DNA of 49,852 nt from Bacteroidales bacterium (GTDB taxonomy: Bacteria > Bacteroidota > Bacteroidia > Bacteroidales > Paludibacteraceae). Made by a program: the position numbers and the translations under genes. Numbering within the stretch: position 1 is the stretch's first letter; the number at the start of each line of letters is the position of its first letter. Positions 5,283-31,597 of the stretch are shown in pieces. The DNA lies in NCBI GenBank assembly GCA_015654525.1, contig JAATGT010000279.1, forward strand, positions 1 to 49,852, read 5' to 3'. The notes beneath the pieces are model-generated. The model worked only from the letters and a program-made list of their open reading frames with translations, did no database searches and had not been told where the DNA came from.

Positions 5283-5345
5283 TAGAGACAACGCATGCGT
5301 TGTCTCTACGTCATGCGTTGTTTCTACGTCATGCGTTGTTTCAAT
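5282..5345. repeat. REP-like palindrome plus 18-bp half-units (cluster 3)
   Basis: The perfect 28-bp palindrome lies at 5282-5309, followed by half-units GTCATGCGTTGTTTCTAC (5310-5327) and a diverging copy (5328-5345). The last unit runs into the 3' end of the RAYT gene, whose stop codon is at 5341-5343. Compared with cluster 2 the linker is GT instead of CAG, so each cluster has its own half-unit version. Confidence 0.9.
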
Positions 5346-5931
5346 CATTTTCCGTTTTATTTTTTGCCGGATTAAATTTATCTTCTTCCCATTTTGCCGG
5401 ATTGTTTTTAATATAATTCGCAATCCTTATATACGATTCTTCATCGCGAATAATTATATCGTAAAAACGTTCTTGCCAATCAAATTCGTAACCCAAGCGG
5501 TGTGCATGTTTTGTTACCGCCGATTTGTATGACCCGATAATGGACGATATTGTATTTGATCCCTGATGTTGATATCGTTTTTGTCCGGGTATTTCCGGTA
5601 GAGACAACGCATGCGTTGTCTCTACATTATGCGTTGTTCCATTATCCGTTTCCCGTTTATTTCCATTCAATGCCAAAATGCCATGTATATGATTTGGCAT
5701 TACCTGAAATACATCCAACGTAATGTTTTTTGCATGGTTTTTTATTTCGTACCAAAGCACATCCGCCAACACGCCAACATGCGATAATTGCATGTTGGCA
5801 TCAACAATATCACCAAAATAACATTCCATCCCTTTTGTACAAATGGTAATAAAATAGGCAGCATCATTCCCATAATCCCACCACGATGCACGGGCAGACG
5901 GAATACGATATTTATTCCGGAATTTTTTCAT
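5341..5931 (-). CDS. REP-associated tyrosine transposase (RAYT, Y1/HUH family)
   Basis: This is a 196-residue HUH single-strand transposase of the TnpA-REP type; such enzymes bind and cut REP hairpins with a tyrosine nucleophile. The N-terminal strand is YFITICTKGMECYFG. The metal-binding HUH motif is H81-I-H83 in VMPNHIHGIL. A segment SNTISSIIGSYKSAVTKHAH lies at about 125-144. The C-terminal SYIRIANYIKNNPAKW holds the candidate nucleophile (Y173, with Y167 as an alternative). Length fits the family. Residues 98-112 (GTTHNVETTHALSLP) are encoded by a REP unit at 5598-5640, in the variable loop between the two conserved blocks; the frame is kept. Both catalytic parts are intact. The gene sits only 3 bp after the 302-residue gene and has REP clusters downstream. 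Confidence 0.92.
   Translation of the reverse strand: MKKFRNKYRIPSARASWWDYGNDAAYFITICTKGMECYFGDIVDANMQLSHVGVLADVLWYEIKNHAKNITLDVFQVMPNHIHGILALNGNKRETDNGTTHNVETTHALSLPEIPGQKRYQHQGSNTISSIIGSYKSAVTKHAHRLGYEFDWQERFYDIIIRDEESYIRIANYIKNNPAKWEEDKFNPAKNKTEND
5598..5640. repeat. REP-like unit inside the RAYT gene
   Basis: The perfect 28-bp palindrome is at 5598-5625, followed by one 15-bp half-unit (ATTATGCGTTGTTCC). It is read on the minus strand as GTTHN plus VETTHALSLP, and because the unit is a palindrome both strands encode VETTHALSL in this frame. It is identical to the three intergenic palindromes, which suggests recent movement or conversion. Confidence 0.9.
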
Positions 5932-8120: not shown

Positions 8121-8774
8121 ATGAAAATCATAAATCTATCGGAGAATAACTCCGTGTTGAAGCACTACATTAGAGAAATTCGTTCCGTCAAGATTCAGAA
8201 AGATTCTATGCGTTTCCGCCGCAATATGGAACGCATTGGTGAAATAATGGCCTACGAAATGAGTAAAACCATGCGTTACAAAGCCGAAGAAGTAAAAACT
8301 CCGCTAGGGGTGGCGCATACCGAGGTGATTGATGAAAAAATAGTGATTTCAACTATTCTTCGTGCCGGGTTACCGTTTCATCAGGGCTTTCTGAGCTATT
8401 TCGATTCGGCCGAGAATGCCTTTGTTTCGGCATACCGCAAGTATAAGGATGCGCTGAAGTTCGATATTTATATTGAGTACATAGCTTCGCCCAGTCTGGA
8501 CGGAAAAACGCTGATTATTACCGATCCGATGCTCGCCACCGGTGGTTCAATGGAATTAGCATACGGCGCATTGCTTACCAAAGGCAAACCGGCTCATGTG
8601 CATGTGGCTACTGTCATTGCAAGTCAACAGGCTATTGATTATGTGGCTTCACATTTCCCCGAAGCTAAAACAACTATCTGGGCTGCCGCCATCGATCCTG
8701 AATTAAACGACCATTCTTACATCGTTCCAGGCATTGGAGATGCCGGCGATTTGGCTTTTGGCGAAAAATTGTAA
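8121..8774 (+). CDS. upp: uracil phosphoribosyltransferase
   Basis: This 217-residue protein converts uracil and PRPP to UMP (pyrimidine salvage, cytoplasm). The PRPP-binding loop LIITDPMLATGGSM lies at about 134-147, and the uracil-binding end PGIGDAGDLAFGEKL closes the protein. RAGLPFHQGF matches the family block that normally reads RAGLGM in enterobacterial enzymes. Length is normal (about 208-217). The gene stands alone; a -7-like box lies 24 bp upstream and a repeat-filled intergenic region follows. Confidence 0.93.
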   Translation: MKIINLSENNSVLKHYIREIRSVKIQKDSMRFRRNMERIGEIMAYEMSKTMRYKAEEVKTPLGVAHTEVIDEKIVISTILRAGLPFHQGFLSYFDSAENAFVSAYRKYKDALKFDIYIEYIASPSLDGKTLIITDPMLATGGSMELAYGALLTKGKPAHVHVATVIASQQAIDYVASHFPEAKTTIWAAAIDPELNDHSYIVPGIGDAGDLAFGEKL

Positions 8775-9580: not shown

Positions 9581-12500
9581 TTAGGTCATCTTAGCGGGAG
9601 CTCCTACAAAGCAAGTGTTTGCCGGAAGCGTCTCGCTTTTCATCAACACCGACAAGGGTTCCAGCACGGAGCGGTCTTCCATCTTGGAATCGTATAGCAC
9701 TACCGCCATGCCGCCAACACTACACTTTTTGCCAATATCTACAAACGACATTTTCATCACCCTATCTTCAAAAAGATGGGTTTGAAGCGTACAATTATCA
9801 TTCAACGCCGAGTTATCGTCAATTTTCACCAAGTCGAACTCCGTAATCTGCGTGGTATACATGCACACCTTTTTCCCTATCTTGCATCCAAGTAAGCGGA
9901 GTGGATATTTTATAAACGGCGTTCCGGTAAGAACATTGAGAAAAAACAATACCAAAAAATTTTCATATACCCCGGTCACCAGTTCGCTTCTCCACACATA
10001 ATTGCTCCACAAAGGTTTTTTATCGGGCACATATTTACCAATAATAATCCACTTTATTAACGCCATAATCAACGTTCCCAAAACCGCAGCAGCCAAATAC
10101 AAAAACGGAAATACTAATAATAATTCCCAAAGATCTTTTTCTACCTGTAGGTACGACACAGCATTGGTAATCAGCGCTGCATACAATATAAACAAGGTTG
10201 TAGGAAGTGTTACACGAAAATATTCGATGCAATAGCGCAGGAAAAATAATTTTTTAGTCGGTTTATAGGTTCGTTCGGCCGTGAAATCATGATTAATATC
10301 GCGTTTAGGCAAATACACTGCCGGAGATCCAAACCAGGACGTACCATCCTTTGCCGGCAGATCTTCTTTACTCATTTTTGATAAAACTCCTACCAGTACA
10401 TCGTTGCCAAGACGTGTGTTTGGACTAATCACCGCGCTGTTGCCCACAAAAGTGCGGTTGCCGATATAGGTTTTGGCAATATCGATATAACCGTTGCGAA
10501 CATGCGAAGCTCCAACCGAAACCGAGTCGGCCAGAAAACATTCATCACCCGTAACCAGCAAGTCGGGCGAGATGAATTCGACGGTTGATATCTCCACCCG
10601 TTTTCCCATCTTTACTCCCAACATTTTAAACCAGAACTGAAGATAAAGTGTGGTGTAAAGCGTACCGATAACCTGCAAGCTCAGTTTCATCAACTGGTCA
10701 AAGAACCATTTTTTGACATAAAACGTGCTGTTGACCTTGTATTTTCCTTCTTTTATATTTCCAAGTAAAATCCATTTCAATATGGTTATCAATAATGTCA
10801 GTAAAACCACAAACGAAAGCCCTACCAGAATAGTGAACCACAAGAAATGATGACTTTCCGTAGAATAATCGAGGTGTGTAATAAGCATCATACCCGGGAA
10901 ATAGGCAATCATGGTAATCAACGGGATTAAAAACACGCTGATTGAATATAAAATGGTATTTCGTACCGACCAGAGTGTAACGGTTGGCTTTTTGTCGTTT
11001 ATTCCGATCTTTGCTGCTGGCGATCCACCCCAATTTTCATTTGCGGGAATAACACAACCTTCGGGAACAAGCGTCAAATCGTCGATGGAAGAGTTTTTCT
11101 CCATCTTGCTGTTGTGCGACAAGCAGCAACGCGTGCCTACAAAGCAATCGTCGCCTACTTCGATAGCTCCGATATGAAGATAACCGTCGGCAATGGTGTA
11201 TCCCCTCAAATGCGAGTCGGTACAAATGCTTACATTATCACCCACATTCAACAAATCGAAAATAGAAATGGCCGACGTATTGATGTAACTGTTTTTACCC
11301 ACCTTTGCTCCTACCAGTCGCAGGAATACATTCATAATGTTGGTTCCGGTAAAGTAAGTTATCGGGCAAATATTAATCACTTTGTCCACTATCCAGAACC
11401 GGAAATAATAACTTCCCCAAAGTTTGTATTTACCTGCCTTCACCTTGCCAATTACCGCCCATTTAAAGCCAATGGCAAACAACGATAGCACCGGAAGAAT
11501 GGCAAAATACATCAATAACATCATCGACAATGAGTCGAACACGCCAAGTTCTGCCTGATAGTAATAAGAATATACAAAAAACGGCCCCAACCATTCCATA
11601 CCAAACAGCAGAATGATAAAGAACATGGAAATACCCTGAAAGAAACCGCAGGTATAATAGCTCAACTTCGACGGGCTGTAAATATCCCGTTCTTTTTTGG
11701 GTGCAGATTCTTTCGGGGGTTGGTTCTTTTCTAGTTCGCGGGCCAAATCGCGCAAAACCGGAAATTTATAGACATCCACCACCGACATATTTTCAAACAT
11801 CTTCAGTTCCCGCATTTCCGAAACAACTAATGCTGCCAACAGCGAATGTCCGCCAAGTTCATCAAAAAAGTTATCGTCCATCGAGATATCATCCCGATGA
11901 ATGTTTCGTGCAATGATGCGAACCATCTCGCGTTCCAACTGGGTAGCCGGTGGAATAATTTCTTTTTGTGCTGAAAAGCCAAGCGGCGTTTGAGGAGCCG
12001 GCAAACTCTTCCTATCTATCTTTTGACTCGATGTCATAGGCAATGAATCCAGCACATCCAGGGTGGAAGGAATCATATAATAAGGTAACTTCAACCGAAG
12101 CAAGTTGGAAATTCCTTCGCGATTAATTGTTTCGCCTTTTCGTTCCACCACATAAGCCGCCAGCTGCTGCGTATCGGTATCTAATGCCACAACTGCAGCC
12201 TGAATGCCGCCGCATTGCATGATTAACCATTCTATCTCCGATAATTCTACCCTGAACCCGCGTACCTTTACCTGCGCATCGGCTCTGCCCAGAAAAATAA
12301 TATTTCCATCGGGACTCAGCTTTGCCAAATCACCGGAACGGTAATATCGTTCGGAAATGCCCTTATAGTTGTCGGTTTCAATAAACTTGCGGGAAGTCAA
12401 CTCGGGCTGATTCAGGTAGCCGCGGGCCACACTTTGTCCGCCTATCAATATTTCACCTTCTTCGCCATCCGCAACCGGTTCCAGTTGCTCATTTACAATC

Positions 12501-13459
12501 AACACATCGTAACCATCCAGCGGTTTTCCTATTGTAACAGTTTCCTGCGGTTTTAATATTGAATAAGTTGCAATAACAGCCGCTTCGGTTGGTCCATACG
12601 TATTATAAACTGCCCTACCCTTCTTGCACCATCGGTTAGCAATATCCGTTGAACATACTTCGCCGCCAAAAATAAGGGTTTTCAGTCCGGGCATGTCCTC
12701 TTTTACCATCGAGAGCAAAGTAGGTGTGCACGAAAGGAAGGTTATTTTCAGATCATTTAAAATAGAGGCCAGTTTATCGCCCGAACGCATAATTTCAAAG
12801 GTTCCGATTACCATGGTAGCCCCGACAGACAACGGGACCCAGATTTCTTCCACCGAAGCATCAAACGAAACCGAAAATCCCTGCAATGCCCTGTCGGTAT
12901 CATCAATGGAATATATTAGTTGCGCTCCGTGGATGTAATTGGCCACATTTCTGTGTTCGAGCAGCACGCCTTTGGGCTTTCCGGTAGTGCCCGAAGTATA
13001 AATAATATAGCATAAATCGGTTTCGGAACGATTTATTACCGTTGGTTTCGTTTCTGGAAGATCATTCAGCGCGGTAAGCTGATGATTCATATTAAATAAA
13101 TCATGCTGACTAAGTTGCTCCCCGATTCGCTCAAGGATTAGATCGGCAGTAATGATCAGTTTGGCCCCCGAATCTTCCATGATAAAATTTACACGGTCGG
13201 CCGGAATCTCCGGATCAAGAGGAATATAGGCTCCACCGGCCTTCAACACGCCCAGCATCGCAATAGAAACCTGAGCGCACCGCGGCATCAGGATCACCAC
13301 TTTCTCTTCCGGCTTCACCCCCTTCCCAATCAGGAAGTGTGCCAAGCGGTTCGCCGTTTTTTCAACTTCAGAATAAGAATATTTAATCTCACCTTGCTCA
13401 ATGGCAATTGCATCGGGGTAACGAGTGGCCGATCTCTCAAAAAACTGATCCAGAAACAT
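9581..13459 (-). CDS. Pls/PosA-type NRPS-like amino-acid polymer synthetase (A-T-three membrane/beta-helix units)
   Basis: The protein has 1292 residues from the ATG at 13459. An upstream in-frame ATG at 13546 only adds a 29-residue tail before the normal A-domain start MFLDQFFERSATRYPDAIAIE. Adenylation domain (1-490): YTSGTTGKPKG at about 154-164, FDASVEEIW 199-207, NTYGPTEA 286-293, YRSGDLAKLSPDG about 373-385, and K480 in SQKIDRKSL. Carrier domain (505-580): phosphopantetheine Ser539 in DELGGHSLL. Then three repeats of membrane helices plus a hexapeptide left-handed beta-helix (about 600-820, 830-1060, 1070-1292). No condensation or thioesterase domain is present. This layout and length match epsilon-poly-lysine synthetase Pls and PosA relatives. 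A hand alignment to PheA gives the pocket D200 A201 E204 S243 I263 G265 T287 V295 I296 K480, a basic-amino-acid type. It is inferred to be a membrane enzyme that polymerises a diamino acid; the product is unproven. It lies divergent to a VanZ-like gene. Confidence 0.88.
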   Translation of the reverse strand: MFLDQFFERSATRYPDAIAIEQGEIKYSYSEVEKTANRLAHFLIGKGVKPEEKVVILMPRCAQVSIAMLGVLKAGGAYIPLDPEIPADRVNFIMEDSGAKLIITADLILERIGEQLSQHDLFNMNHQLTALNDLPETKPTVINRSETDLCYIIYTSGTTGKPKGVLLEHRNVANYIHGAQLIYSIDDTDRALQGFSVSFDASVEEIWVPLSVGATMVIGTFEIMRSGDKLASILNDLKITFLSCTPTLLSMVKEDMPGLKTLIFGGEVCSTDIANRWCKKGRAVYNTYGPTEAAVIATYSILKPQETVTIGKPLDGYDVLIVNEQLEPVADGEEGEILIGGQSVARGYLNQPELTSRKFIETDNYKGISERYYRSGDLAKLSPDGNIIFLGRADAQVKVRGFRVELSEIEWLIMQCGGIQAAVVALDTDTQQLAAYVVERKGETINREGISNLLRLKLPYYMIPSTLDVLDSLPMTSSQKIDRKSLPAPQTPLGFSAQKEIIPPATQLEREMVRIIARNIHRDDISMDDNFFDELGGHSLLAALVVSEMRELKMFENMSVVDVYKFPVLRDLARELEKNQPPKESAPKKERDIYSPSKLSYYTCGFFQGISMFFIILLFGMEWLGPFFVYSYYYQAELGVFDSLSMMLLMYFAILPVLSLFAIGFKWAVIGKVKAGKYKLWGSYYFRFWIVDKVINICPITYFTGTNIMNVFLRLVGAKVGKNSYINTSAISIFDLLNVGDNVSICTDSHLRGYTIADGYLHIGAIEVGDDCFVGTRCCLSHNSKMEKNSSIDDLTLVPEGCVIPANENWGGSPAAKIGINDKKPTVTLWSVRNTILYSISVFLIPLITMIAYFPGMMLITHLDYSTESHHFLWFTILVGLSFVVLLTLLITILKWILLGNIKEGKYKVNSTFYVKKWFFDQLMKLSLQVIGTLYTTLYLQFWFKMLGVKMGKRVEISTVEFISPDLLVTGDECFLADSVSVGASHVRNGYIDIAKTYIGNRTFVGNSAVISPNTRLGNDVLVGVLSKMSKEDLPAKDGTSWFGSPAVYLPKRDINHDFTAERTYKPTKKLFFLRYCIEYFRVTLPTTLFILYAALITNAVSYLQVEKDLWELLLVFPFLYLAAAVLGTLIMALIKWIIIGKYVPDKKPLWSNYVWRSELVTGVYENFLVLFFLNVLTGTPFIKYPLRLLGCKIGKKVCMYTTQITEFDLVKIDDNSALNDNCTLQTHLFEDRVMKMSFVDIGKKCSVGGMAVVLYDSKMEDRSVLEPLSVLMKSETLPANTCFVGAPAKMT

Positions 13460-14124
13460 AATTAGTAGTAAATTAGATTGGTTATTGATTAGATAAAACG
13501 GTGTAAATTTATGTATTATATATTGCAAAAACAAAATATATCTCAATCAGACTATAAATATCCTTTGAAGTTTAATCTATTCCCTCTTTGTTAAACTATA
13601 TTTTTAATGTAATGCGCCAGAACAAACAAAATATCCTGAAACCTCAGAAGCCTTATCAAGCATCAGTGATTTTATTGTCAATATTATTTTTTGTTATTGG
13701 AATAAATTTTCCAATAACAGCAACTAAGTTTACTCAATACATATAATAATGTATTTCATCTGGATATCCACTAATCAAATTAAATTTCCATAAGTATAAC
13801 AACATCTATAACTATTCCGTTGTTATTAAGATGAGTTTCGACAACAGTTGATAATTCAGCTCCCATTTTCTTTATCAATATTATATTCACGTTACCGTTT
13901 AAAACTGGAATTAAAACAATAAATCACTTGTAATCTTAGTAATGCCTTCGAACACGGTGTTAATAGAAACAGATTACCCCTTTCATAAATCAATAATTTT
14001 ATGGGTTAAGTGTTTTGTTCTATATTTTAAAGAATTATCTTTGCAAAGATAATTCTTTAACGGTATTGGTTAATAAATTAATACAGCTCATATCATTCAA
14101 TTTCTCATTTTTTATTCACTAAAT
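13460..14124. other. divergent intergenic region between synthetase and VanZ genes
   Basis: This is 665 bp of AT-rich DNA without an open frame I can support. It holds a hairpin TGTTATTGGAA...TTCCAATAACA (13692-13719) and the 34-bp palindrome at 14027-14060. As the shared upstream region of two divergent genes it is the likely regulatory zone for both. Confidence 0.6.
14027..14060. promoter_or_regulatory. 34-bp perfect palindrome with a -7 box on each strand
   Basis: The half-site TTAAAGAATTATCTTTG is followed at once by its exact reverse complement. TATCTTTG (14036-14043, plus; 14044-14051, minus) fits TAnnTTTG on both strands. On the plus strand a TTG lies 18 bp upstream, close to the usual 19-21, and the VanZ-like start is about 80 bp downstream. 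It may be a bidirectional promoter, an operator overlapping the promoter, or a cruciform. Confidence 0.5.
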
Positions 14125-14535
14125 ATGAAACTTATAAATATTCTTCTCCGATATTGGGAATCAATTATAATTGCTCTAGGCATTCTGTATTTGTCCTTTG
14201 CTCCTCCTTCAACGTTTAAAGGCGTGCCTTCGTTCACTAATGAAGATAAACTTGTTCACTTACTTTTATATTCTGGCTTGACCTGTGTTTTAATCTTCGA
14301 TTTCAGAAGATATGCTAAAAACAATAAGACCAATACACTTGGGTTCATTTTAGTTTGTCTCGCATTTCCTATCTTTCTCGGAGGACTTGTCGAAATTCTG
14401 CAACCCATGTACTTTGCTCCCCGCACAGCCGAGTGGTCCGACTGGTTTAGCGATATTCTCGGAACATTATTGGGTTTATTGGCAATGTACATCCTCCGGT
14501 TAATGCCAAATACAACAAACAAAACTTCAAAATAG
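14125..14535 (+). CDS. VanZ-like membrane protein
   Basis: This 136-residue protein has about four hydrophobic segments: IIIALGILYLSFAP, LVHLLLYSGLTCVLIF, FILVCLAFPIFLGGLVEIL and ILGTLLGLLAMYILRL. The VanZ signature elements are present: a DK-hH run (EDKLVHLLLY), GGLVEILQPMY with the conserved Glu, and RTAEWSDWFSDILGTLLG. VanZ-domain proteins are inner-membrane; in enterococci one gives low-level teicoplanin resistance, but most have unknown roles. The gene is divergent from the polymer synthetase, and its probable promoter lies in the 34-bp palindrome. The inverted repeat copy 2 begins 16 bp after its stop. Confidence 0.85.
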   Translation: MKLINILLRYWESIIIALGILYLSFAPPSTFKGVPSFTNEDKLVHLLLYSGLTCVLIFDFRRYAKNNKTNTLGFILVCLAFPIFLGGLVEILQPMYFAPRTAEWSDWFSDILGTLLGLLAMYILRLMPNTTNKTSK

Positions 14536-28130: not shown

Positions 28131-29336
28131 TTACGCCAGTTTGCTACAAATTTCAAGCGTATCGGAAGCAATCATAAACTCTTCGTCGGTAGGAATTACC
28201 ACTACCTTCACCGTAGAGTCCGGTGTACTGATTACCGCTTCGATGCCCTGCGTTCTGTTGTTGACTTCCTTATCTATTTTGATGCCCATAAATTCAAAGG
28301 CCTCACAAACAAACTCACGCGTAATGCGGTGGTTCTCTCCTATCCCACCGGTAAACACAATAACGTCTACACCACCCAAAGCAGCCATGTAAGAACCTAT
28401 GTATTTTTTCAACCGGTATTCAAACATCTGCCAGGCCAGTTCAGCCCGTTCGTTACCTTCCACTCTGCCCGTTTCTATATCGCGCATATCCGACGATATA
28501 CCCGAAATACCCAACATACCACTGTGTTTGTTGAACAAAGTTGAAACAGCCGATGCACCAAGCATTTCTTTTTCCATCAGGAAGGTAACCACACCCAAAT
28601 CCACGTCGCCCGAACGGGTACCCATCATCAATCCTTCAATAGGCGTAAATCCCATAGAAGTATCAACCGATTCGCCGTTTTTCACAGCTGTTACTGAAGC
28701 TCCGTTACCAATATGAGCCGTAATTATTTTGGTGTTGAGATAATCGAGTCCCAGGTAATCACACACACGTTTCGACACATAGCGGTGGCTCGTTCCGTGG
28801 AAACCATAGCGACGGATGCCGTATTTGGTATATAATGAATACGGAATGCCATACATATAAGCATAATCGGGCATAGTCTGGTGAAAGGCCGTATCGAAAA
28901 CCGCTACCTGAGGAACCGAGGGTAACAATTCGTTGATGGCGCGTATACCAGCCAGATTTGGTGGATTGTGCAACGGGGCTATGTCTATACATTCTACAAT
29001 TTTGTGTATCACCTCGTCAGTAATAAGCACACTGCTGTTGAATTTTTCTCCTCCGTGAACCACCCGGTGACCCACCGCGTCAATTTCTTCCAGAGACTTG
29101 ATACAACCATGTTTCTCGCTAGTCAGTACACCCAAAATATATTCTACAGCAATCTGATGCTCCAGAATTTCACCTTTCAATATCACTTTTTTTCCGTCGC
29201 GACGAACATGTTTCAGAAAAGAACCTTTCATACCCAGTTTCTCTACGGCACCGGTTCCCAATTCTTCTTTGCTCTCCATGTCGAGCAACTTATATTTCAC
29301 TGATGAACTTCCACAGTTCAATACTAATATCTTCAT
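28131..29336 (-). CDS. ackA: acetate kinase
   Basis: This 401-residue enzyme converts acetyl phosphate and ADP to acetate and ATP. Motifs: LVLNCGSSSVKYKLL at 4-18, GHRVVHGGEKF at about 88-98, FDTAFHQTMP at about 146-155, HIGNGASVTA, GTRSGDVD, and FTGGIGENH near the C-terminus. Full-length, all catalytic blocks present. It is last in the minus-strand operon pta - hydroxyacyl-CoA dehydrogenase - ackA and starts 15 bp after the dehydrogenase stop. Confidence 0.97.
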   Translation of the reverse strand: MKILVLNCGSSSVKYKLLDMESKEELGTGAVEKLGMKGSFLKHVRRDGKKVILKGEILEHQIAVEYILGVLTSEKHGCIKSLEEIDAVGHRVVHGGEKFNSSVLITDEVIHKIVECIDIAPLHNPPNLAGIRAINELLPSVPQVAVFDTAFHQTMPDYAYMYGIPYSLYTKYGIRRYGFHGTSHRYVSKRVCDYLGLDYLNTKIITAHIGNGASVTAVKNGESVDTSMGFTPIEGLMMGTRSGDVDLGVVTFLMEKEMLGASAVSTLFNKHSGMLGISGISSDMRDIETGRVEGNERAELAWQMFEYRLKKYIGSYMAALGGVDVIVFTGGIGENHRITREFVCEAFEFMGIKIDKEVNNRTQGIEAVISTPDSTVKVVVIPTDEEFMIASDTLEICSKLA

Positions 29337-29351
29337 GTTTTCCGTTCCTCC

Positions 29352-30308
29352 TTATTTGATTATATTTCCAGCTTCGTCATACGTATAAAAACCTTTGCCA
29401 CGGCTTACACCAAAATGTTTAGCACGATATAAACGCAGCAGCACAGGCGATGGTTTGTATTTCAGACTGCCATACTCATCCCACAGGTTTTCGAGCAGTT
29501 TTACAATTTTCTCAATACCCATTTGATCGGCCGTGCGAAAAACTCCCTGACGGTGACCAAAACCCGCTGTAAGTACCAAATCAATATCTTCAACAGTCGA
29601 AATGCCTTCCATTAAAATACCGCAGGCCTCATTCAGCAGAATAAGAAACAAACGGATACTAATCAATCCTGCCGATTCCGTTACCGGAACATATTGGTGA
29701 TTGATTAATTTGGCAAACTGACAAACTTTATCGAAAGTTTCCTTAGAAGTATTTAAACCCGGAACAATTTCAATAATTTGCGAACCCGTTATATTTGACA
29801 GGAAATGCAGTCCGATGCAACGCTCGGTATGTTCCAGCTCGGCAGCCAGATCAGTAACAATAACAGTGGAAACATTGGAAGCAATGATAGCATTTGTTGA
29901 AAGTACTTTTTCCAACTGCAGGAATACTTCCTTGCGGTGATTCACGCGACGTTCGCCCGTCTCCTCATCATAACGAATAGCTTCGATAACAAAATCGCAA
30001 CCACTAAAATCTTCGTAGTTGGTAGTACCTGAAACTCGCGATAAAATTGCCTTTTTCTCGTTGATCGTCAGACCCCAGTTTTCAATTTTCTTGTCCAACT
30101 TTTCCTCTATACGAGTAAAAGCGTTAGCAATTCTATCTTCAGACGGTTCAAGAAAAACTACTTCCATGCCGTTCATTGCCGCAGTAGTAGCAATTACACT
30201 GCCTTCTTTCCCGCAACCAACCACGCCAATACGCGAAAACAAGGTCCGTTTCCGGTTTCGCTTGCTCAGGCCGTAGCGCTCTATTGCTTCAATCATTTCT
30301 TCTGCCAT
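29352..30308 (-). CDS. 3-hydroxyacyl-CoA dehydrogenase-like protein, catalytic Asn replaced
   Basis: This 318-residue relative of Hbd/PaaH has the NAD motif GVVGCGKEGSVIA at about 28-40. Of the family catalytic residues, Ser147 (SNVST), His168 (LHFLSN) and Glu180 (QIIEI) are present. The Asn in the usual PGFVVNRIL helix is aligned with Ile218 (AGLISIRLF). The usual HFFNP is HFLSN. The C-terminal domain is normal (NEACGILMEGISTVEDIDL...GFGHRQGVF, ending GKGFYTYDE). An N-terminal 25-residue extension precedes the Rossmann fold. It sits between pta and ackA, so a fermentative role is likely, but activity on 3-hydroxyacyl-CoA may be altered. Confidence 0.85.
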   Translation of the reverse strand: MAEEMIEAIERYGLSKRNRKRTLFSRIGVVGCGKEGSVIATTAAMNGMEVVFLEPSEDRIANAFTRIEEKLDKKIENWGLTINEKKAILSRVSGTTNYEDFSGCDFVIEAIRYDEETGERRVNHRKEVFLQLEKVLSTNAIIASNVSTVIVTDLAAELEHTERCIGLHFLSNITGSQIIEIVPGLNTSKETFDKVCQFAKLINHQYVPVTESAGLISIRLFLILLNEACGILMEGISTVEDIDLVLTAGFGHRQGVFRTADQMGIEKIVKLLENLWDEYGSLKYKPSPVLLRLYRAKHFGVSRGKGFYTYDEAGNIIK

Positions 30309-30404
30309 ATAAAACCCTCCAAACCTCCCAGAAGAGAGGTTATTTAGTTAGTATTTTTTGTTTAAATATATCTATTCCGTCTGATCACCTTTAGAATCCG
30401 GCGA

Positions 30405-31403
30405 TTATTTCATTGCCTGATTAGCCGTAATGGTAATCATTCTCACAATATCATCCACAGCACAACCACGCGAAAGATCATTGATTGGCGCAGCCATTCC
30501 TTGTAGAATTGGTCCCACAGCTTGTGCGCCGGAGAAGCGTTCCACCATTTTATAACCGATATTTCCGGCTTGCAGATCAGGGAAAACCAATACGTTTGCA
30601 TGTCCGGCAATTTTACTTCCCGGAGCTTTGCTTTGTCCTACCGATGGAACCAGAGCTGCATCAGCCTGAAGTTCTCCGTCTATCATCAATTCGGGAGCCA
30701 TTTCTTTGGCAAGGCGGGTAGCTTCCACTACTTTGTCTACAAATTCATGTTTAGCACTTCCTTTCGACGAAAAGCTCAACATGGCTACACGTGGTTCAAA
30801 TCCGGCAATTACACGGGCGGTTTCAGCCGTGCAAATAGCTATTTGGGCTAACTCAGGTGCGGTTGGATTTGGATTTACAGCACAGTCAGCAAAAACCAAC
30901 AGTCCGTTCTCACCATATTGGTGTGTTGGAGTAAACATCAACAAAGCACCAGAAACAACGCTGATACCCGGTAAAGTTTTTACAATCTGGAAAGCCGGAC
31001 GTAGTACGTTACCGGTTGTATTTTGAGCTCCGGCCAATTCTCCGTCGGCATCACCGTTTTTAATCAGCAGACAACCCAGGTACAACGGATTTTTTGCCAG
31101 TTTTGTTGCCTCTTCAAGTGTCATTCCCTTACTTTTGCGAAGTTCAAACAGCAAGTTTGCGTAAACGGGCATCTTTGCATCTGTTTCCGGATCCACAATG
31201 GATGCTTCAGCAATATGAGTAAGCTTGTTTTCGGCAGCAATTTTTTTGATCTCAGCTTCATTACCAATCAGTATCAGCTTAGCTGCTTTTTCTTTCAAAA
31301 TAATATCCGCCGCTTTTAATGTACGAATTTCAGTACCTTCGGGCAAAACAATACGTTGTACGTTTGCCTTGGCACGTGCCATAATCTTTTCTAATAAATC
31401 CAT
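30405..31403 (-). CDS. pta: phosphate acetyltransferase
   Basis: This 332-residue enzyme interconverts acetyl-CoA and acetyl phosphate. The start is taken at ATG 31403 ([20 protein letters not shown]), the usual start of the short Pta form; an upstream in-frame codon at 31571 would lie upstream of the promoter. Motifs: [13 protein letters not shown] at the N-terminus, [44 protein letters not shown] and [16 protein letters not shown]. No regulatory N-terminal domain, as usual for this class. First gene of pta-dehydrogenase-ackA. Confidence 0.96.
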
Positions 31404-31468
31404 TTTGTTGAAATATAATGTGTTGTAGTATTCGGCTAGAGGAGAAAGTCTTCGGGCTGAAAACAATA

Positions 31469-31498
31469 CAAAGATACAGCAAAATTCTAAAGTTGCAA
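31469..31498 (-). promoter_or_regulatory. pta operon promoter
   Basis: On the minus strand TTG (31498-31496), 19 bp, then TATCTTTG (31476-31469) gives an exact Bacteroidota promoter. The leader before the pta ATG at 31403 is about 60 nt, which also supports that start. Confidence 0.72.
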
Positions 31499-31597
31499 TG
31501 TAGAGATGGCAGTTTCTGTCAGATATTTGGGTCAAAATCAATTTGTATGATAAATATATCAATTTATCCATGCAAAATAAAATCAGGTACTATTTAT

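What the first reader, a model, noticed from the sequence alone, without database searches (positions are those of the whole stretch)
9581..13459. Pls/PosA-type synthetase with a basic-amino-acid specificity pocket
Seen: one 1292-residue chain with adenylation and carrier domains, no condensation or thioesterase domain, then three membrane-plus-beta-helix units, the layout of epsilon-poly-lysine synthetase. Aligning the A-domain by hand to PheA gives D-A-E-S-I-G-T-V-I-K, very close to the lysine code D-A-E-S-I-G-S-V-C-K that I remember for bacitracin synthetase. Inference: this bacterium makes a homopolymer of lysine or another diamino acid (ornithine, diaminobutyrate), a polycation. To my knowledge such polymers are poorly described in Bacteroidota.
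Basis: partly seen in the sequence, partly recalled or inferred. Interest (0 to 1): 0.75.

Follow-up and report, generated by a model that had tools for sequence, protein, structure and literature searches.

The report
Bacterial poly-lysine-making enzyme gene
This is a complete gene for an enzyme of the kind that strings lysine into a positively charged, often antimicrobial polymer, found here in a bacterium of the Bacteroidales, a group for which I found no report of such polymers.

Summary
[quoted passage not shown]), and no condensation or thioesterase match. AlphaFold2 models the C-terminal part as three helix hairpins, each followed by a beta-helix. It has counterparts of the five residues reported to contact Lys-AMP in the Streptomyces poly-lysine synthetase, and the alanine proposed to mark lysine. 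Best explanation: an epsilon-poly-L-lysine synthetase. It belongs to a Bacteroidales clade of 23 tree rows, 22 with this exact pocket, two of them named isolates. The gene stands alone and is patchy in its genus (6 of 36 genomes over the cut-off, own included). The family is known to be widespread, so this is a new member of a known kind. What is added is the lysine assignment, the clade, named carriers, and a conservation pattern that points to the third beta-helix unit for catalysis. No product has been shown.

The parts
9581..13459 (-). Pls/PosA-family synthetase, 1292 aa, intact; likely epsilon-poly-L-lysine synthetase
12002..13459 (-). Adenylation domain, residues 1-486
   Evidence: AMP-binding PF00501 and AMP-binding_C PF13193; TIGR01733; AF2 model pLDDT 88.6 for residues 1-598
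12020..12862 (-). Span of the codons of the specificity code D200 A201 E204 S243 I263 G265 T287 V295 I296 K480
   Evidence: alignment to PosA positions
11735..11923 (-). Carrier (thiolation) domain, residues 513-575, with phosphopantetheine Ser539 (codon 11843-11845)
   Evidence: PP-binding PF00550; GGHS at 536-539
9593..11638 (-). NRPS_term_dom polymerisation domain, residues 608-1289
   Evidence: TIGR02353 601.3 bits, cut-off 423.1; same place; AF2 pLDDT 90.8
11453..11668 (-). First helix hairpin (transmembrane), residues 598-669
   Evidence: AF2 helices, hydropathy
11000..11377 (-). First beta-helix unit (C1), about residues 695-820; least conserved unit
   Evidence: 7 of 126 columns at 95% or more
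10766..10966 (-). Second helix hairpin (transmembrane), residues 832-898
10295..10672 (-). Second beta-helix unit (C2), about residues 930-1055
   Evidence: 24 of 126 columns at 95% or more
10043..10255 (-). Third helix hairpin (transmembrane), residues 1069-1139
9584..9952 (-). Third beta-helix unit (C3), residues 1170-1292; most conserved unit
   Evidence: 29 of 123 columns at 95% or more
9749..9784 (-). QTHLFEDRVMKM block, residues 1226-1237, proposed active-site segment
   Evidence: identical in 74 of 77 aligned rows

Best explanation
The gene encodes a membrane-bound epsilon-poly-L-lysine synthetase. The adenylation domain activates L-lysine with ATP: Asp200 and Lys480 hold the amino acid's amine and carbonyl, and Glu204, Ser243 and Thr287 hold the side-chain amine. 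The lysyl group is loaded on the phosphopantetheine arm of Ser539; one phosphopantetheinyl transferase (205 aa) was found in the genome. The C-terminal domain then joins it through a side-chain amine to a free lysine or growing chain that is held without a covalent bond, over and over, giving a short polycation. I place the catalytic site in the third beta-helix unit around His1228-Glu1231-Asp1232-Arg1233-Lys1236. The three hairpins anchor the enzyme and may guide the chain outward. Shown here: domains, pocket residues, conservation, fold model. Inferred: substrate, product, active site, export, and an antimicrobial or surface role.
For: TIGR02353 over its curated cut-off. Pocket DAESIGTVIK by alignment to PosA. 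The Lys-AMP contacts of Pls_A (D213, E217, S256, T301, K495; passage of PMC11253843) correspond to D200, E204, S243, T287, K480. Position 2 is Ala, proposed for lysine; Met is given for Orn and Phe for Dab/Dap (PMC10522769). Control: a Streptomyces homologue with a diaminobutyrate transaminase gene next to it reads DFECLSAVTK. The same ten letters occur in 56 of 78 rows of the tree. A phosphopantetheinyl transferase is in the genome. AF2 models of both halves are confident. The reaction scheme follows PMC9205021 (passages).
Against: I know of no measured activity or product for any member of this clade. Identity to characterised PosA is only 35.6%. The 7WEW residues were matched through PosA and near-constant offsets, not by a direct alignment to 7WEW. 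Arginine is a formal alternative: the ApnA A1 pocket, described with Glu204 and Ser243, takes Arg and Tyr, and a family member from Bdellovibrionales prefers Arg. No export, immunity or degradation gene was recognised beside it. The position-2 rule is the PosA authors' proposal.
Confidence: 0.8

Rival explanations
1. A Pls-family enzyme that polymerises a different basic amino acid: ornithine (as PosA), diaminobutyrate, diaminopropionate, beta-lysine or an arginine-like substrate.
For: Family members share Asp and Glu at code positions 1 and 3 (PMC10522769). PosA also activates lysine weakly, so pockets overlap. All four actinobacterial plasmid homologues that I read have Phe at position 2.
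Against: PosA reads DMEHNGTVSK, Dab/Dap-type enzymes have Phe at position 2, the beta-lysine code is DGESISVVNK and the Arg-preferring one DSECYGGVTK. None matches. M218A in PosA raised lysine efficiency nearly tenfold.
Confidence: 0.12
2. An enzyme that transfers one or a few lysines to another acceptor (lipid, polyamine, cell-wall amine) instead of making a free homopolymer.
For: Single C-terminal units match left-handed beta-helix acyltransferases, and few family members have been tested.
Against: The whole polymerisation domain of proven polymer synthetases is present over its curated cut-off, with the C3 block identical in 74 of 77 rows.
Confidence: 0.06
3. A decayed or silent gene with no product.
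For: Patchy: 6 of 36 genomes of the genus, own included, are over the cut-off, and no operon is seen.
Against: The frame is intact, and motifs and pocket are kept at 66-81% identity across the clade.
Confidence: 0.02

Closest known systems
Epsilon-poly-L-lysine synthetase Pls of Streptomyces albulus (adenylation domain PDB 7WEW)
   Same: A-T-three-unit membrane layout; the reported Lys-AMP contact residues have counterparts in the window protein
   Different: Different phylum; solitary gene; whole-protein identity to Pls itself was not measured (adenylation domain 7WEW: phmmer E 4.7e-72)
Delta-poly-L-ornithine synthetase PosA of Acinetobacter baumannii (PDB 8G95-8G98)
   Same: Same architecture over the whole length, 35.6% identity; also described as a single-gene operon
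   Different: Pocket DMEHNGTVSK against DAESIGTVIK: among others Ala for Met and Ser for His
Bacitracin synthetase BacB module 1 lysine adenylation domain
   Same: Code DAESIGSV as printed in PMC3207962 (passage) against DAESIGTV
   Different: Part of a multimodular NRPS with condensation domains and no such polymerisation domain (recalled, from no call)
Left-handed beta-helix acyltransferases and gamma-carbonic anhydrases
   Same: Fold of the C1-C3 units: maltose O-acetyltransferase 3hjj and gamma-CA chains of complex I are among the 50 Foldseek rows listed
   Different: Only single units match (TMq at most 0.18 in those 50 rows); no full relative of the C-terminal domain in the PDB copies searched (60 of 64 and 50 of 491 rows seen)

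Membership tests
Pls/PosA family (cationic homo-poly-amino-acid synthetases) | TIGR02353 NRPS_term_dom over the curated cut-off | tested here: met
   601.3 bits, cut-off 423.1
Pls/PosA family (cationic homo-poly-amino-acid synthetases) | One adenylation and one carrier domain with phosphopantetheine serine | tested here: met
   PF00501, PF13193, PF00550; Ser539
Pls/PosA family (cationic homo-poly-amino-acid synthetases) | No canonical condensation or thioesterase domain | tested here: met
   no such Pfam family at E<=0.001
Pls/PosA family (cationic homo-poly-amino-acid synthetases) | Three pairs of transmembrane helices alternating with three beta-helix units | tested here: met
   AF2 model, hydropathy; a prediction, not a solved structure
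Pls/PosA family (cationic homo-poly-amino-acid synthetases) | Makes an isopeptide-linked homopolymer | not testable with these tools
   needs enzyme assay or culture extract
Epsilon-poly-L-lysine synthetase (Pls proper) | Lysine pocket: Asp, Ala, Glu, Ser, Thr, Lys at the corresponding positions | tested here: met
   D200 A201 E204 S243 T287 K480 against contacts in PMC11253843 and the position-2 rule; no direct alignment to 7WEW was printed
Epsilon-poly-L-lysine synthetase (Pls proper) | Activates L-lysine in preference to other amino acids | not testable with these tools
   needs ATP-PPi exchange
Delta-poly-L-ornithine synthetase (PosA) | Ornithine pocket DMEHNGTVSK | tested here: not met
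   window reads DAESIGTVIK
Poly-Dab/Dap synthetases | Phe at code position 2 | tested here: not met
   Ala201

The most novel reading that the evidence does not exclude
A lineage of Bacteroidales makes and releases epsilon-poly-L-lysine from a single stand-alone gene that comes and goes between species, and polymerisation is carried out by one active site in the third beta-helix unit while the first unit is mainly structural. Bacteroidales (mostly anaerobes; recalled) would then be an unexplored source of this antimicrobial, with two named isolates ready to test.
Probability: 0.4. Interest if true: 0.55.

Novelty: new member of a known kind. Interest (0 to 1): 0.36.

Why it matters
Poly-lysine is approved for food preservation in an increasing number of countries (abstract of PMC8117764), and production outside actinobacteria and fungi is little explored. 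If the Bacteroidales enzymes make it, these bacteria may use a polycation for competition, surface charge or biofilm control. The family's conservation pattern also gives a testable hypothesis for the active site of a polymerisation domain for which the PDB searches made here showed no solved relative.

Tried and rejected
Plus-strand reading of the coordinates: stops throughout, so the gene is on the minus strand. Gene cluster or operon: the nearest listed genes on both sides lie on the other strand (upp 8121-8774 +, VanZ-like 14125-14535 +; ORFs under 100 aa were not listed). Among 27 loci of the clade compared (window included), 8 ORF groups are shared by four or more loci: the synthetase, and seven groups of small ORFs whose printed representative lies inside or overlaps the synthetase gene. 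Of the groups shared by exactly three loci, an ABC-exporter-like and a histidine-kinase-like one lie outside it, each in 3 of 27 loci and neither with a member in the window (these two labels are mine from the sequence). Flanks are short in several of those loci. RNA features: 0 Rfam matches, 0 tRNAs. Promoter scan: 24 sites against 16.2 expected (sd 4.8), not informative. Phage origin: 3 of 79 phage records with a match cover at least 80% of the query, at 29.5-35.2% identity, two named Acinetobacter phage; not followed. Plasmids: 63 of 3000 records with a match cover at least 80%, all under 60% identity. Direct alignment to 7WEW: tried through a Streptomyces query, but that homologue is Dab-type and 7WEW was not the alignment printed; published contact residues were used instead. 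Weak TIGR02353 matches: 56 of 60 genomes, and 13 of 14 control genomes, ring at E<=0.001; only matches over the cut-off were counted (7 of 60; 1 of 14 controls). L119 was first read in the wrong frame and corrected to DFEYVGTVTK.
Full report
Observation. The finding's coordinates hold an intact open frame on the minus strand. The mechanical ORF is 9581..13546, and the ATG at 13459 gives 1292 residues. Reading the plus strand gives stops throughout. NCBIfam TIGR02353, 'Pls/PosA family non-ribosomal peptide synthetase', matches residues 608-1289 at 601.3 bits against a cut-off of 423.1. Pfam finds AMP-binding, AMP-binding_C and PP-binding over their cut-offs, plus hexapeptide repeats, and no condensation or thioesterase family at E<=0.001.

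Pocket. The PosA paper (PMC10522769; abstract and sections 4, 6, 8-11, 13 and 14 read) gives the code of PosA as DMEHNGTVSK and names the residues that contact ornithine in co-crystals. A PosA gene was fetched from a public record (L115). The eight positions numbered in the paper (217, 218, 221, 260, 280, 304, 312, 313) carried the published letters; the Gly (282) and the final Lys (502) were placed by me from the code and the conserved C-terminal motif. In a MAFFT alignment of 87 rows those columns read D200 A201 E204 S243 I263 G265 T287 V295 I296 K480 in the window, that is DAESIGTVIK. The review PMC11253843 (passages) lists the Lys-AMP contacts of S. albulus Pls as D213, E217, S256, T301 and K495. 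The window residues D200, E204, S243, T287 and K480 correspond in kind and order, with offsets of 13, 13, 13, 14 and 15; I could not print a direct alignment to 7WEW. The PosA authors propose that position 2 sets chain length: Phe for Dab/Dap, Met for Orn, Ala for Lys, with M218A raising lysine efficiency nearly tenfold. The window has Ala. As a control, a Streptomyces homologue with a diaminobutyrate transaminase gene beside it reads DFECLSAVTK; the four actinobacterial plasmid homologues read all have Phe at position 2. The code of the bacitracin lysine module is printed as DAESIGSV in PMC3207962 (passage).

Relatives. A scan of genome contigs kept the best 80 of 352 related stretches. Identity to the window is 66-81% for 27 Bacteroidales-clade rows (five of them apparent copies) and 35-45% for the other 56 rows compared. 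In a FastTree tree of 78 rows, the Bacteroidales clade has 23 rows with SH-like support 100; its sister is one Elusimicrobia row. The tree is quick, its deepest forks are weak (67), and it flags odd letter make-up in many rows. Of the 23 rows, 22 carry DAESIGTVIK and one DAESVGTVVK. Over the whole tree 56 of 78 rows carry DAESIGTVIK, in several phyla. Other Bacteroidota (Pedobacter, Taibaiella and others) lie in a separate clade, several with about 200 extra residues at the N-terminus of the open frame. Named isolates within the window's clade are Segatella paludivivens DSM 17968 (L047) and Bacteroides neonati MS4 (L053), both with full-length open frames and the same code.

Host and distribution. 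The window lies in a 4.16 Mb, 361-contig, 89% complete genome with one TIGR02353 match over the cut-off and four weak ones. In the same genus 6 of 36 genomes, own included, are over the cut-off, and 1 of 24 genomes from other families of the order. The five other same-genus hits lie on contigs whose lengths equal those of records fetched; one of these five is titled Paludibacter, the rest Bacteroidales, Bacteroidota or Bacteroidetes. The genus is therefore probably Paludibacter; this is inference. In a phylum sample of genomes at least 80% complete, 6 of 394, own included, are over the cut-off. The gene is uncommon and patchy, though some absences may be assembly gaps.

Surroundings. The nearest listed genes are on the opposite strand: a uracil phosphoribosyltransferase (8121-8774) and a VanZ-like protein (14125-14535; under its Pfam cut-off, over its NCBIfam one), then dprA, purH and an mreB, mreC, penicillin-binding transpeptidase and FtsW/RodA group. 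No neighbour outside the gene was shared by more than 3 of 27 clade loci. PosA is likewise described as a single-gene operon. The genome holds one phosphopantetheinyl transferase match, with ACPS and 4PPT_N domains in 205 aa, which could activate Ser539.

Fold and active site. AlphaFold2 with 68 rows gives the C-terminal 703 residues at pLDDT 90.8 and pTM 0.89: three pairs of long helices, each followed by a beta-rich unit. This agrees with the model described in the PosA paper. The best Foldseek matches are single units of hexapeptide acyltransferases and gamma-carbonic anhydrases, with TMq at most 0.18 in the 50 of 491 rows listed, and a sequence search of the PDB lists only such proteins and chance-level hits among the 60 of 64 rows shown. 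The A-T half is modelled at 88.6, and its best match is the LgrA initiation module in the thiolation state. Conservation is uneven: columns at 95% or more in 77 rows number 7 of 126 in C1, 24 of 126 in C2 and 29 of 123 in C3, and QTHLFEDRVMKM (1226-1237) is identical in 74 of 77 rows. I infer that C3, with help from C2, holds the active site. This may already be known in part: a mutational study of the three tandem domains exists (Kito et al. 2013, seen only in reference lists), and a figure legend in PMC7179176 marks conserved residues of the tandem domains for polymerisation.

Mechanism. [quoted passage not shown] The window protein has the parts this needs. What is shown here is domain content, pocket identity, conservation and fold model. 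Substrate, product, linkage, length, export and biological role are inferred.

Novelty. The family, the lysine code and the wide distribution are known. I found no paper on such polymers in Bacteroidota in the searches made (titles and abstract starts of the listed rows seen), but the library is open-access only and the PosA supplement, which lists homologues, was not read. I file it as a new member of a known kind.

Noticed in passing
L079:7479-12509 (Geothrix limicola), and by similar length L076, L077, L085, L088, L091, L092: Pls-family synthetases of Holophagaceae carry about 200 extra C-terminal residues; in the one tested (L079) this is a 4'-phosphopantetheinyl transferase domain (PF01648, 2.5e-15), so the enzyme may activate its own carrier domain.
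   Followed up: partly
L100, L104 (Pedobacter), L084, L087, L089, L097, L106; also L077, L079, L092: About 170-240 extra residues of open frame before the adenylation domain; no Pfam match for the one tested (L100), but the junction looks to me like the end of a condensation domain (recalled motif, untested).
   Followed up: partly
window 5341-5931 (-): Weak match to REP-associated tyrosine transposase (48.3 bits, under the cut-off of 80).
   Followed up: no
window 28131-31571 (-): Acetate kinase, 3-hydroxyacyl-CoA dehydrogenase and phosphate acetyl/butyryl transferase in a row: possible acid-forming fermentation cluster.
   Followed up: no
phage record MT835761.1 10356-14264: A Pls-like protein over the full query length at 29.5% in an 18.9 kb record labelled Bacteriophage sp. 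from human faeces; may be host DNA.
   Followed up: no
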